Assembly (NCBI RefSeq): GCF_030687295.1
Contig: NZ_CP117425.1
Location: 744,001 to 808,000 of the forward strand
From: Pseudomonas beijingensis
Lineage (GTDB): Bacteria > Pseudomonadota > Gammaproteobacteria > Pseudomonadales > Pseudomonadaceae
Length of the DNA stretch: 64,000 bases
Reading direction: 5' to 3'
Shown: piece by piece, positions 14,656-20,632 of the stretch
Numbering within the stretch: the stretch's first letter is position 1
How the letters are laid out: each line of letters starts with the position of its first letter
Program-made: the position numbers and the translations under genes
The notes under the pieces: generated by a model
Seen by the model: the letters and a program-made list of their open reading frames with translations, nothing else
Databases searched by the model: none
Told to the model about the DNA's origin: nothing

Positions 14656-17280
14656 TCAGGCACTGATACGCGCCTCGCTGGCCAGGCGGTTGATGGCACG
14701 CTCCAATTCTTCCAGGGCGACGGCAGCCTTGGGGTCCTGCTGCTTGAGCAGGGTTTCGCTGCGCTGGCAGGCCGCCCGCAATTGCGGCACGCCGCAGTAG
14801 CGAGTGGCACCGTGCAGGCGGTGGACCCGTTCGATCAGGGCGTTGTGATCGTTGGCCTCGCAGGCCTGGCGGATCGCCTCACGGTCGGCTTCCAGGGACG
14901 CCAGCAGCATCGCCAGCATGTCCGCTGCCAGGTCAGCCTTGCCAGCGGCCAGGCGCAAGCCTTCTTCATGATCGAGCACCAACAGTTCGCTGCCACCCTG
15001 GGCATCGCTGCTGCGCTCCGGCGACTGGTTGCGCAGGGCCAGGCCAGTCCATTTGAGCACCACCTGGGCCAGTTGCCGTTCGCTGATGGGTTTGGTCAGG
15101 TAGTCGTCCATGCCGCTTTGCAGCAGGGCGCGTTTTTCGTTGGCCATGGCGTGGGCGGTGAGGGCGACGATGGGCAGCGGTGTGCAGTGTCGCTCGCTTT
15201 CCCACTGGCGGATCGCCTCGGTGCTCTGGCGACCGTCCATGCCGGGCATCTGCACGTCCATCAACACCAGGTCGAAGGTTTCCTTCTGCACGGCCTTGAC
15301 CGCTGCGTAGCCGCTTTCCACCGCCAGCACCTTGGCGCCCATGTCTTCGAGCAGGGTCTGCACCAGCAGCAGGTTGGCCGGGTTGTCGTCCACGCACAGC
15401 ACTTTCGGGGCACGGCTGGCAACCGGCTCGCTGGGTTCGCTGCGGGTCGGGCGCGGGTTGACCAGGTCGGACAGCGAGCGGCGCAACTTGCGGGTGCAGG
15501 CCGGCTTGGCCTGCAACTGACTGTGCGGGTTGGGCACCGAGAGGTGGTACAGCGTCTGCTCGGTGGTGGGGCACAGCACGAGCACTTTGCAGCCCAGGTG
15601 CTCAAGGTCCCAGATGTGCTGGTTGAGGCGCTCCGGCGGCATGTCGTTGCTGGTGATGCCCAGCACGGCCAGATCGATCGCCTGGTCGGTCTGGTGGGCG
15701 ACGGTGATGCCGTTGGTCAGGCTCTCCAGGGTGTTGAACGGCGTCACTTGCAGGCCGCAGTCTTCGAGCTGGTGCTGCAAGGCCTGGCGGGCCAGTTCAT
15801 GGTTCTCCAGTACCGCCACGCGCCGGCCCAGCAACGGCGGGCCGGGCAGGTCTTCGGCATCGTCACGGGTCTTGGGCAGGCGCAGGCTGATCCAGAACTC
15901 CGAGCCTTCCCCCGGTGTGCTATCGACGCCGATCTCGCCACCCATCTGTTCCACCAGGCGCTTGGAAATCACCAGGCCCAAGCCGGTGCCACCCGGTTGC
16001 CGCGATAGTGAGTTGTCAGCCTGGCTGAACGCTTGGAACAACGCCCGCACGTCCTGGCTGGACAGGCCGATGCCGGTGTCCTGGATGCTGATGCGCAACT
16101 GCACGCTGTCTTCGTGCTCGTCCTCGAGCATGGCCCGGGCGACGATGGTGCCCTCGCGGGTAAACTTGATGGCGTTGCTCACCAGGTTGGTGAGGATCTG
16201 CTTGAGGCGCAGTGGATCGCCCACCAGCGACAGCGGCGTGTCCCGATAGACCAAACTCACCAGTTCCAACTGCTTGGCGTGGGCGGCGGGGGCAAGGATG
16301 GTCAGGGTGTCCTGCAACAGGTCCCGCAGATTGAACGGAATACTGTCGAGCACCAGCTTGCCGGCCTCGATCTTCGAAAAGTCGAGGATTTCATTGATGA
16401 TCCCCAGCAGGCTGTCGGCGGATTTCTCGATGGTGCCCAAGTAGTCGAGCTGGCGCGGGGTCAGTTCGCTTTTCTGCAACAGGTGGGTAAAACCGAGAAT
16501 GCCGTTGAGCGGTGTGCGAATTTCATGGCTCATGTTTGCCAGGAACTCGGATTTGATCCGGCTCGCTTCCAGGGCTTCCTTGCGGGCAAGGTCCAGCTCG
16601 ATGTTCTGGATCTCGATGGTTTCCAGGTTCTGGCGCACGTCTTCAGTGGCTTGGTCGATGCTGTGCTGCAATTCTTCCTGGGCGTTCTGCAAAGTGCTGG
16701 CCATGCGATTGATGCCCGAGGCCAGCTCGTCCAGCTCCTGGCTGCCCAGCGGTGGCAGGCGGGTTTCCAGGTGCCCGTCCTTGAGTTGCGCCACGGCGTG
16801 CTTGATCTGGCTCAGCGGACGGTTGATCGTGCGCCCCATGCGCAGGGCCAGCAGCGCGGTCAGGCCCAGGCAGGCGGCGATCAACAGCAGGCTGGCGAAC
16901 ATACTGCGATAACCGCTTAGCAACATGCCGCTGTGGGACAACTCCAACTCGACCCAGCCCAGCAGGCGGTCGGTTTCTTCGGGAATCAGTTCGCCCGCCA
17001 GGTTGCGGTGCTTGCCGAATACCGGCAATAGATAACGCGTAGCGTCGTTGCCGGTGCGTTGCAGCAACTGCGCACTGTTGCCCTCCGGTGCCCGGTTGAG
17101 CATGGTCGGGCCGGCGTGGGCCAGCGGCGCAGTGTAGCGATTTGCGGGCGGGGGATCTTTGTAAAATTCGTGTCGGCCGTGCATCGGATCGACCCGAGGG
17201 TTGTTGCAGCGCGATCTGCAATCGCTTGGTGGGTATTCGCTGGCAGACCAGGAATGCAACCGTATCTTCGATCCGCTCAC
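14656..17280 (-). CDS. gacS: GacS hybrid sensor kinase, 5'-truncated
   Basis: GacS is the membrane kinase of the Gac/Rsm cascade that switches on secondary metabolism and exoproducts. About 823 residues match it: TM2 (LLLIAACLGLTALLALRMG), HAMP, HisKA (NMSHEIRTPLNGILGF), ATPase (GGTGLGLVISKRLV), a degenerate and a true receiver (DLVLMDVQMPGMDG) and HPt (RVHRLHGATRYCG). Homology starts at PLAHAGPTMLN, about base 17127. The first ~95 residues (TM1 and most of the periplasmic domain) and the native promoter are missing. Upstream codons to a GTG at 17280 encode unrelated sequence. Full-length GacS is about 917 residues. Probably inactive or signal-blind. Confidence 0.9.
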   Translation of the reverse strand: MSGSKIRLHSWSASEYPPSDCRSRCNNPRVDPMHGRHEFYKDPPPANRYTAPLAHAGPTMLNRAPEGNSAQLLQRTGNDATRYLLPVFGKHRNLAGELIPEETDRLLGWVELELSHSGMLLSGYRSMFASLLLIAACLGLTALLALRMGRTINRPLSQIKHAVAQLKDGHLETRLPPLGSQELDELASGINRMASTLQNAQEELQHSIDQATEDVRQNLETIEIQNIELDLARKEALEASRIKSEFLANMSHEIRTPLNGILGFTHLLQKSELTPRQLDYLGTIEKSADSLLGIINEILDFSKIEAGKLVLDSIPFNLRDLLQDTLTILAPAAHAKQLELVSLVYRDTPLSLVGDPLRLKQILTNLVSNAIKFTREGTIVARAMLEDEHEDSVQLRISIQDTGIGLSSQDVRALFQAFSQADNSLSRQPGGTGLGLVISKRLVEQMGGEIGVDSTPGEGSEFWISLRLPKTRDDAEDLPGPPLLGRRVAVLENHELARQALQHQLEDCGLQVTPFNTLESLTNGITVAHQTDQAIDLAVLGITSNDMPPERLNQHIWDLEHLGCKVLVLCPTTEQTLYHLSVPNPHSQLQAKPACTRKLRRSLSDLVNPRPTRSEPSEPVASRAPKVLCVDDNPANLLLVQTLLEDMGAKVLAVESGYAAVKAVQKETFDLVLMDVQMPGMDGRQSTEAIRQWESERHCTPLPIVALTAHAMANEKRALLQSGMDDYLTKPISERQLAQVVLKWTGLALRNQSPERSSDAQGGSELLVLDHEEGLRLAAGKADLAADMLAMLLASLEADREAIRQACEANDHNALIERVHRLHGATRYCGVPQLRAACQRSETLLKQQDPKAAVALEELERAINRLASEARISA

Positions 17281-17385
17281 CCGCCTTGATGGCTCCCGCC
17301 CAGGGGGACGGCTGTGGGCGCGGAATGGCAGGAGGGGGGTGATTGATCTATGGGTTGGTGCTCAGTCGTACGAAAAGATGAGCAG

Positions 17386-17586
17386 TCATGCTGTGGATGG
17401 AAGTGCAAGCCTAGGCAACCGGCTTTCTTTGAATGAAAATTTTTCAGCGCAAGTCTCAAAATCACTTTTTAAGTTGCTTAGGTAACGTGTGAGCCTTTTT
17501 CTTACATCGGTCTGTTGAAGATCTTGGGACGTTATGCCGTACCGCGGCGGGGCGTAGATCTTCTCATGGGCGTCCGTTTGGGTCAC
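17386..17586 (-). CDS. possible small protein of the island
   Basis: 66-residue open frame starting with GTG, reading TQTDAHEKIYAPPRYGITSQD... with mixed charged composition and no membrane segment. It is not recognised. A 94-residue frame on the opposite strand (17201-17485) overlaps it, and I cannot tell which, if either, is expressed. No good ribosome site is visible. Confidence 0.3.
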   Translation of the reverse strand: MTQTDAHEKIYAPPRYGITSQDLQQTDVRKRLTRYLSNLKSDFETCAEKFSFKESRLPRLALPSTA

Positions 17587-19958: not shown

Positions 19959-20222
19959 CTACTCCCGACGCAGATCACGTGCCCGCTCACCCTCCCCAGT
20001 CACCAGCCACACTTCACTGACACTCAGCAAACGGGCCAATTGCTCCACCCGCAGCCGAGGTATACCCCGCGCGCTCCAGTTAGTCAGGCATTGAGGGCTG
20101 ATACCGAGCACCTCGGCAAATCCTGAGGGAGAGATGTCGTACTCTTCCAATAGGTTACGCAAGCGTTGCCCGCAAGCGCGCCGAGCGCTGGGGTGTGGAT
20201 CTTTTTGTTTCGCGTCGACCAT
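19959..20222 (-). CDS. Cro/C1-type helix-turn-helix regulator
   Basis: 87-residue single-domain protein. The region CGQRLRNLLEEYDISPSGFAEVLGISPQ begins an HTH whose second helix is QCLTNWSARGI, and it ends with VSEVWLVTGEGER, the usual tail of phage-repressor-like N-terminal domains. No C-terminal oligomerisation or peptidase domain follows, so it may be a stand-alone regulator or the stub of a longer phage repressor. GC is near the chromosomal average, unlike the AT-rich centre of the island. The start at 20222 lacks a strong ribosome site. Confidence 0.75.
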   Translation of the reverse strand: MVDAKQKDPHPSARRACGQRLRNLLEEYDISPSGFAEVLGISPQCLTNWSARGIPRLRVEQLARLLSVSEVWLVTGEGERARDLRRE

Positions 20223-20632
20223 CGTTATTGCTCAACACCTACTAATAATACGTTTAGCGGTACGACTGTAAAGAACGCGGTGCAAAGCCAGATAGCTTTA
20301 AACGCCTGGTCGTCGATATAAAAGGAACGAGCCCACAAACAGACAGGAAGAGTGCCTACGGACGGTACTTACAACAGAGATACATGCATGATTTGAGCGC
20401 TCAGGCCTGTAGGAAAAAGGTTGTGTGGAGTACGGAATCGACCACATAGGCCTGAGCATCACGTGCGCGAGCGCGGATTTGGTGGCGGGGGACAAGCTCC
20501 TCCATCCAGCAGCGCCCCCGGCTTTCGCCTCGCTTATTCCCATAAGCCATAACCCCCTTACTTTGCGTGATATGGCCTCGCCGGGTTTGCCGGTATGATA
20601 GGCGCCCCCGCAGCCCGGATTGCGAATACGCC
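20223..20632. other. region between HTH gene and cysM
   Basis: 410 bases. The left half (to about 20400) is AT-leaning and would carry the HTH promoter. The right half is GC-rich and includes the cysM leader with TTTGCCGGTATGATAGG before the start. A 49-codon minus-strand frame (20401-20550) exists without a recognisable domain. None of the missing gacS N-terminus is found here. Confidence 0.55.

What the first reader, a model, noticed from the sequence alone, without database searches (positions are those of the whole stretch)
14656..20632. gacS truncated by an AT-rich island; a probable natural Gac-defective strain
gacS loses homology at about 17127, dropping roughly 95 N-terminal residues (TM1 and most of the sensor domain) and its promoter. 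In the normal Pseudomonas order gacS and cysM are adjacent and divergent; here about 3.4 kb of foreign-looking DNA lies between. Loss of Gac signalling would remove most regulated exoproducts and is known to confer growth advantages. Insertion plus deletion by a non-transposon island is an unusual route.
Basis: partly seen in the sequence, partly recalled or inferred. Interest (0 to 1): 0.85.

Follow-up and report, generated by a model that had tools for sequence, protein, structure and literature searches.

The report
Truncated gacS beside decayed bacteriocin genes
A Pseudomonas has lost the start of its master sensor gene gacS through a small local deletion, next to a separate, worn-down bacteriocin gene cluster of which mainly an immunity-like gene remains; this looks like a natural example of a well-known kind of mutation rather than a new mechanism.

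Summary
The truncation is real in this sequence. The window's gacS matches intact GacS only from residue 94 to 916, and the missing start was not found elsewhere in the single-contig genome. The gacS-cysM interval is a variable site: of 65 measurable named relatives 17 have under 400 bp and 48 have 1.9-5.2 kb, the 48 with a response-regulator gene. The nearest relative in hand (G223, gacS intact) carries there a bacteriocin-type cassette; the window island is a collapsed form of it, keeping a candidate immunity gene, two small regulators and two IS fragments. GacA, RsmX/Y/Z and two 7TMR-DISM kinases are present. Loss of Gac signalling is likely but unproven: sensor-deleted GacS was near-null in P. 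aeruginosa, yet the sensor was reported dispensable in CHA0. Assembly error is not excluded.

The parts
14656..17127 (-). gacS remnant: GacS residues 94-916 plus stop (end of sensor domain, TM2, HAMP, HisKA, HATPase, receiver, Hpt)
   Evidence: tblastn of intact GacS: residues 94-916, one frame, 96.2%; Pfam HAMP, HisKA, HATPase_c, Response_reg, Hpt, and only positions 77-144 of 145 of sCache_4
17127..17130 (-). deletion junction; about 339 bp missing relative to G010 (L033), about 340 relative to G223; short microhomology possible
   Evidence: two-piece alignments; flanking letters of ten relatives
17130..17187 (-). retained gacS leader with CTACACT element
   Evidence: 78-91% identical to the leader in 21 of 80 intervals compared; 89.8% to G223
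17240..17362 (+). remnant of the 3' part of the histidine kinase gene that lies between gacS and cysM in many relatives
   Evidence: tblastn HK residues 391-451, 42.6%, E 2e-8
17528..17726 (+). upstream region shared with the bacteriocin cassette of G223
   Evidence: 74.6% over 205 columns to G223; a second G223 stretch matches 17523-17647
17587..17602 (+). palindrome CCCTACATGTGTAGGG, candidate operator
   Evidence: one match in the window, 0.07 expected; of 221 loci 15 have an exact match: 12 copies of this region and the cassette-bearing L071, L200, L203
17846..18049 (+). 67 aa hydrophobic ORF, two hydrophobic stretches, no Pfam or NCBIfam family
18146..18556 (+). 136 aa membrane protein, candidate immunity protein (orfB136)
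   Evidence: about 55% identical to the gene directly after the double-glycine peptide in G223; 9 proteins found in a large protein search, one of them 99% identical with no source shown; no Pfam/NCBIfam family
18600..18929 (+). 109 aa hydrophobic ORF (orfC109) containing the homopolymer tract
   Evidence: 68% identical to G223
18812..18871 (+). T47G13 homopolymer tract; only run of 24 or more T in the genome
   Evidence: G223 has a short T-rich stretch here
19022..19222 (-). 66 aa LuxR-type HTH-only regulator
   Evidence: Pfam GerE 2.2e-16; 97% identical in G223, 92% in G281
19602..19747 (-). IS66 tnpB fragment
   Evidence: 82% to an IS66 tnpB gene over 149 bp; Pfam TnpB_IS66 hit of 15.2 bits, below the 26.6 cut-off
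19799..19943 (-). IS5-family transposase fragment
   Evidence: 78% to ISPst7/ISPa52-type transposase genes over about 145 bp
19959..20222 (-). 87 aa Cro/C1-type HTH protein
   Evidence: Pfam HTH hits, all below cut-off; 92% in G223, 78% in G281, 80% in G052
20633..21535 (+). cysM, intact, divergent from gacS
   Evidence: Pfam PALP; 81-99% identical in relatives

Best explanation
A local deletion of about 339 bp removed the gacS start codon and its surroundings, TM1 and most of the periplasmic sensor domain, leaving the upstream leader and codons 94-916. Without its native start, any product would come from another start and would lack TM1 and most of the sensor; the likely result is loss or strong reduction of GacS-driven GacA phosphorylation and so low RsmX/Y/Z. 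Independently, the neighbouring variable site between gacS and cysM once held a bacteriocin-type cassette, which collapsed in this lineage to a candidate immunity gene, two small membrane ORFs, two small regulators and IS fragments. Shown: the deletion in this sequence, the retained leader, no second copy of the 5' end found, the rest of the cascade present, the fuller island in relatives. Inferred: deletion mechanism, loss of Gac output, immunity function, order of events.
For: gacS matches residues 94-916 only, in one frame; 97 of 97 relative loci start at residue 1. Leader adjacent to the break, offset 339 bp in G010 and 340 in G223; 7 of the 15 loci compared show the two-piece pattern. Residues 1-92 have elsewhere in the genome only a 32% hit in another 652 aa frame (E 2e-7) and two hits at E 0.3. 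Nearest relative G223 has an intact gacS frame and the full cassette. Cascade present: RsmY 124.5 bits, RsmZ 131.7, two rsmX, GacA 317 bits (cut-off 280), two 7TMR-DISM frames over the cut-off. In P. aeruginosa a GacS lacking 102 residues of its periplasmic domain gave gacS-null-like biofilm and reduced rsmY/rsmZ (PMC5595915, passages). Gac mutants arise repeatedly (PMC7695008, PMC8262913, PMC3390384, passages); of 150 printed genus genomes 5 have a stop or frameshift in gacS.
Against: No reads, transcript or phenotype. The remaining codons show no relaxed selection (dN/dS 0.033-0.049 between the window and five close relatives, 0.031-0.053 among those five), which fits a recent deletion or a retained function. 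A weak AAGG lies just before GTG 17280, the first start of the open frame (read by eye), so a fusion product is possible. In P. fluorescens CHA0 the periplasmic domain was reported not essential (Zuber 2003, seen only as cited in PMC5595915). Microhomology is 3-4 bp by the leader of 8 of 10 relatives printed, but only 1-2 bp by G223, L051 or L035 (read by eye). No GacA-box match near RsmZ under a recalled motif, though RsmY has a perfect one. A T47G13 tract 1.7 kb away hints at local assembly trouble.
Confidence: 0.65

Rival explanations
1. The truncated GacS is still made and works as a signal-blind relay: TM2, HAMP, kinase, receiver and Hpt are intact, so LadS can still pass phosphate to the Hpt and RetS can still bind the dimerisation domain. 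The strain keeps Gac output but has lost GacS's own input.
For: All cytoplasmic domains present and not under relaxed selection; two 7TMR-DISM kinases, GacA and four Rsm RNAs present; a weak AAGG before GTG 17280. LadS acts through the GacS H2 domain (PMC4866733, passages); sensor-less GacS still responded to overproduced LadS (PMC5595915, passages); the CHA0 sensor was reported dispensable.
Against: Here TM1 and the start region are lost too, not only the sensor. Of the other 10 start codons in the first 130 codons none has a well-spaced ribosome-binding site by eye (GGAG occurs near codons 114 and 119 at poor spacing).
Confidence: 0.2
2. Assembly or consensus error: the 339 bp are present in the organism and were dropped in this sequence.
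For: A T47G13 tract, the only run of 24 or more T in the 6.45 Mb genome, lies 1.7 kb away, where G223 has a short T-rich stretch.
Against: Single contig, 99.82% complete; the remaining gacS frame is intact over 823 codons. Whether the missing stretch is flanked by longer repeats in this strain could not be tested.
Confidence: 0.1
3. The island's arrival removed the gacS 5' end and promoter in one insertion-deletion event.
For: The break and the AT-rich stretch are close together.
Against: The gacS leader lies between them; G223 and G281 carry the larger island beside intact gacS.
Confidence: 0.04

Closest known systems
Spontaneous gacS/gacA mutants of Pseudomonas (F113, NFM421, CHA0 evolution lines; Pf0-1 gacA)
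   Same: Loss or change of the Gac sensor or regulator in an otherwise intact cascade; origin in nature or storage can be unknown (stated for Pf0-1 in PMC3390384, passages)
   Different: Here a deletion of about 339 bp takes the start, TM1 and sensor and leaves the catalytic domains; the mutations seen in the CHA0 passages were amino-acid changes and a stop in gacA and one change in gacS
P. aeruginosa PAK gacS-delta-PD (engineered, 102 residues of the periplasmic domain removed; PMC5595915, passages)
   Same: Sensor mostly missing, cytoplasmic relay present
   Different: The engineered variant lacks only the periplasmic domain; here the start codon and TM1 are lost too
Class II microcins and Cdz-type glycine-zipper bacteriocins (PMC5380434, PMC13174018, passages)
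   Same: In G223: double-glycine leader peptide, C39-peptidase ABC exporter, HlyD adaptor, TolC, small membrane protein as candidate immunity
   Different: The window has no peptide or exporter; the cassette in relatives also has an HlyC-like acyltransferase and an SbmA-like protein

Membership tests
GacS (BarA-type unorthodox kinase) | HAMP, HisKA, HATPase_c, receiver and Hpt in order | tested here: met
GacS (BarA-type unorthodox kinase) | N-terminal TM1 and complete periplasmic sensor | tested here: not met
   residues 1-93 absent; one hydrophobic stretch in the first 260 residues against two in the first 300 of L033; BarA model 807.8 bits, cut-off 890 (no intact GacS was scored as a control)
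Natural Gac-defective strain | disrupted gacS or gacA with no second copy | tested here: met
Natural Gac-defective strain | reduced RsmX/Y/Z and exoproducts | not testable with these tools
   needs the strain
Natural Gac-defective strain | mutation present in nature, not only in a culture stock | not testable with these tools
   one genome of the species; no reads
Double-glycine bacteriocin (class II microcin or Cdz-like) locus | peptide with double-glycine-type leader | tested here: not met
   none found in 17300-20600; present in G223 (ISGG), and with a GA ending in L071 and G281
Double-glycine bacteriocin (class II microcin or Cdz-like) locus | C39-peptidase ABC exporter | tested here: not met
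   no close relative in the own genome, best-scoring hit 30% over residues 194-704; none in the window at 1e-6
Double-glycine bacteriocin (class II microcin or Cdz-like) locus | cognate immunity gene | tested here: inconclusive
   orfB136 by position and homology to G223 only
Transposon insertion | complete transposase with ends | tested here: inconclusive
   only fragments of IS66 tnpB and IS5 found by similarity; ends and target duplications not searched

The most novel reading that the evidence does not exclude
One locus records a shift to a non-producing, protected lifestyle: the strain lost its bacteriocin exporter and peptide but kept the immunity-like gene, and separately lost the GacS sensor that drives costly exoproducts, while perhaps keeping a LadS-responsive relay. 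It would be a natural 'resistant cheater' whose two steps are readable side by side.
Probability: 0.12. Interest if true: 0.6.

Novelty: new member of a known kind. Interest (0 to 1): 0.38.

Why it matters
Gac status decides whether a sequenced Pseudomonas shows its gene inventory in the laboratory; a strain with a truncated gacS can be misjudged as lacking antibiotics or exoenzymes. If the truncated protein still works, the strain would be a natural test of whether the GacS sensor is needed outside P. aeruginosa. The gacS-cysM interval also emerges as a site where bacteriocin-type cargo and a two-component system come and go.

Tried and rejected
Rejected: island insertion as the cause (retained leader); relocation of the gacS 5' end; relocation of the neighbouring two-component kinase (best-scoring own-genome hit 35% identical); phage origin (no DNA match in the phage collection); plasmid origin (the 22 rows shown of 45 plasmid records match only the two IS fragments). 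'In frame' joining was considered and dropped as evidence: the leader is taken to be non-coding, so the open frame up to 17280 may be an accident. dN/dS does not separate recent loss from retained function. The first DNA alignment was misplaced because the L033 stretch was badly chosen, and was not used. The promoter scan was negative. The repeat scan of the window cannot test repeats at the ends of the missing stretch. Structure prediction of the candidate immunity protein did not run.

Counts: in the genus survey 297 of 298 genomes matched and 150 match rows were printed; all 150 start at query residue 1-3; the other rows, the window's own among them, were not printed. Seven printed genomes with a short frame or a stop flag were fetched; G080 and G299 run into contig ends and were not counted, leaving 5 of 150, which may include sequencing errors; printed genomes without such a flag were not read. 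In one search, 15 of 80 named loci had no cysM in the held DNA and were left out of the spacing counts. In one search, 8 of 15 loci showed no leader match.

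Full report
Setting. The window is 744001-808000 of a 6.45 Mb single-contig Pseudomonas genome. Nearest named loci by gacS protein, among the best 80 of 581 kept, are P. fluorescens ISL-33, P. corrugata DSM 7228, Pseudomonas sp. ICMP22404 and P. citri. Around the locus ISL-33 is 90.6% identical over 13.9 kb, so it is probably another species. The nearest genome in hand is unnamed G223, 94-95% identical over the ldhA-gacS side. The collections may leave out records very near the window, as several answers state.

The truncation. Pfam finds HAMP, HisKA, HATPase, receiver and Hpt domains in the 14656-17280 frame but only positions 77-144 of 145 of the sensor model. 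tblastn with an intact GacS (916 aa, from G010) aligns residues 94-916 in one frame at 96.2%. All 97 relative loci examined align from residue 1 (96 to residue 130, one to 129; not all independent, since two collections overlap). In a survey of 298 genus genomes 297 had a match to the first 200 residues, and all 150 printed rows start at residue 1-3. No second copy of the missing part was found: residues 1-92 hit only another protein at 32% and two places at E 0.3.

The cause. In G010 the window's 16802-17129 matches one stretch and 17127-17185 another that lies about 339 bp further on; 7 of the 15 loci compared show this two-piece pattern, and in G223 the offset is 340 bp. The second piece is the leader upstream of gacS; it is matched in 21 of 80 intervals at 78-91%. 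Eight of ten relatives printed carry CTACACTGCGC in the leader and a TCGCC, ACGCC or similar stretch at codons 93-94, so 3-4 bp of microhomology could explain the joint; by the leader of G223, L051 or L035 it would be only 1-2 bp (read by eye). Whether the promoter survives is open: the CTACACT element is retained and found upstream of gacS in 69 of 97 relatives, but a consensus scan found no promoter.

The neighbourhood. Of 80 named relatives, 65 had both genes in the held DNA: 17 have under 400 bp between gacS and cysM, 39 have 1.5-3 kb and 9 have more than 3 kb. A response regulator was found in all 48 of the longer intervals and its kinase in 47, and neither in the 17 short ones. The window keeps only a fragment of that kinase (17240-17362, E 2e-8), and the kinase was not found relocated (best-scoring own-genome hit 35%). 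G223 does not show this pair at this site. It has about 12 kb with an SbmA-like protein, TolC, a C39-peptidase ABC exporter, an HlyD adaptor, an HlyC-like acyltransferase, a 105 aa peptide with a double-glycine leader, and a small membrane protein directly after it. From 18136 onward the window is collinear with G223 (86.9% over 3.9 kb): orfB136 (about 55%), orfC109 (68%), a LuxR-type HTH protein (97%) and a Cro/C1-type HTH protein (92%). G281 carries the cassette between gacS and cysM, and Pseudomonas sp. QTF5 (L071) carries part of it beyond the two-component pair within the DNA held. The exporter has no close relative in the own genome (best-scoring hit 30%). Equal contig lengths suggest that the orfB136 family and the acyltransferase share a contig in a P. 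fluorescens record (323651 bases) and that G281 is a P. brassicacearum record (6652396 bases); both are inferences. The orfB136 protein itself is rare: 2 of 398 genus genomes have it, the window's own and G223. IS66 and IS5 fragments lie between the two regulators.

How it probably works. The native start is gone. Eleven start codons lie in the first 130 codons of the open frame; by eye, a weak AAGG precedes the first (GTG 17280), GGAG lies near codons 114 and 119 at poor spacing, and the others have nothing clear. So little GacS is expected, and any product would lack TM1 and most of the sensor. In P. aeruginosa, removing 102 residues of the sensor gave near-null behaviour but left responsiveness to overproduced LadS (PMC5595915, passages); the same paper cites work on CHA0 in which the sensor was not essential (the original was not read). 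LadS passes phosphate to the GacS H2 domain (PMC4866733, passages). GacA (216 aa frame), RsmY, RsmZ, two rsmX copies and two 7TMR-DISM frames over the family cut-off, plus a third below it, are present; naming the two kinases LadS and RetS is recalled, not tested. RsmY has a perfect copy of the recalled GacA box nearby; RsmZ has none within two mismatches. Pairwise dN/dS of the remaining gacS codons is 0.033-0.049 between the window and five close relatives and 0.031-0.053 among those five. So the loss is recent, or the remainder still works.

Known ground. Gac mutants arise often: F113 and NFM421 (PMC7695008, passages) and CHA0 on roots (PMC8262913, passages); the sequenced Pf0-1 carries a gacA mutation, and its authors could not tell whether it arose before isolation or in storage (PMC3390384, passages).

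Limits. No reads were available. The T47G13 tract is the only run of 24 or more T in the genome and sits 1.7 kb from the break, so a local assembly fault cannot be excluded. The strain is unnamed; whether other strains of its species share the deletion was not seen in the sources searched.

Noticed in passing
window 18812-18871: T47G13 homopolymer inside a small membrane ORF; G223 has a short T-rich stretch there; the only run of 24 or more T in the genome. Assembly artefact or hypervariable tract.
   Followed up: partly
L203 4899-15075, L200 204-9754, L222, L071: Bacteriocin-type cassette combining a double-glycine-type peptide, an HlyC-like acyltransferase and a 569 aa protein of no known family, with C39 exporter, HlyD, TolC and SbmA-like protein in G223 and G281, in the gacS-cysM interval. 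No paper on this combination turned up in the listings of three searches.
   Followed up: partly
window 17587-17602 and L071, L200, L203: Palindrome CCCTACANNTGTAGGG found, among the 221 loci then held, only in copies of this window region and in cassette-bearing relatives; possible site for the conserved LuxR-type HTH protein.
   Followed up: partly
   Followed up: partly
protein P0111 (816 aa, metagenome): GacS-like protein starting at the methionine that matches the first ATG after the window's break; partial contig or another truncated gacS.
   Followed up: no
window 17846-18049: 67 aa hydrophobic ORF with no counterpart in G223 at 1e-3; possibly a second immunity-type gene.
   Followed up: no
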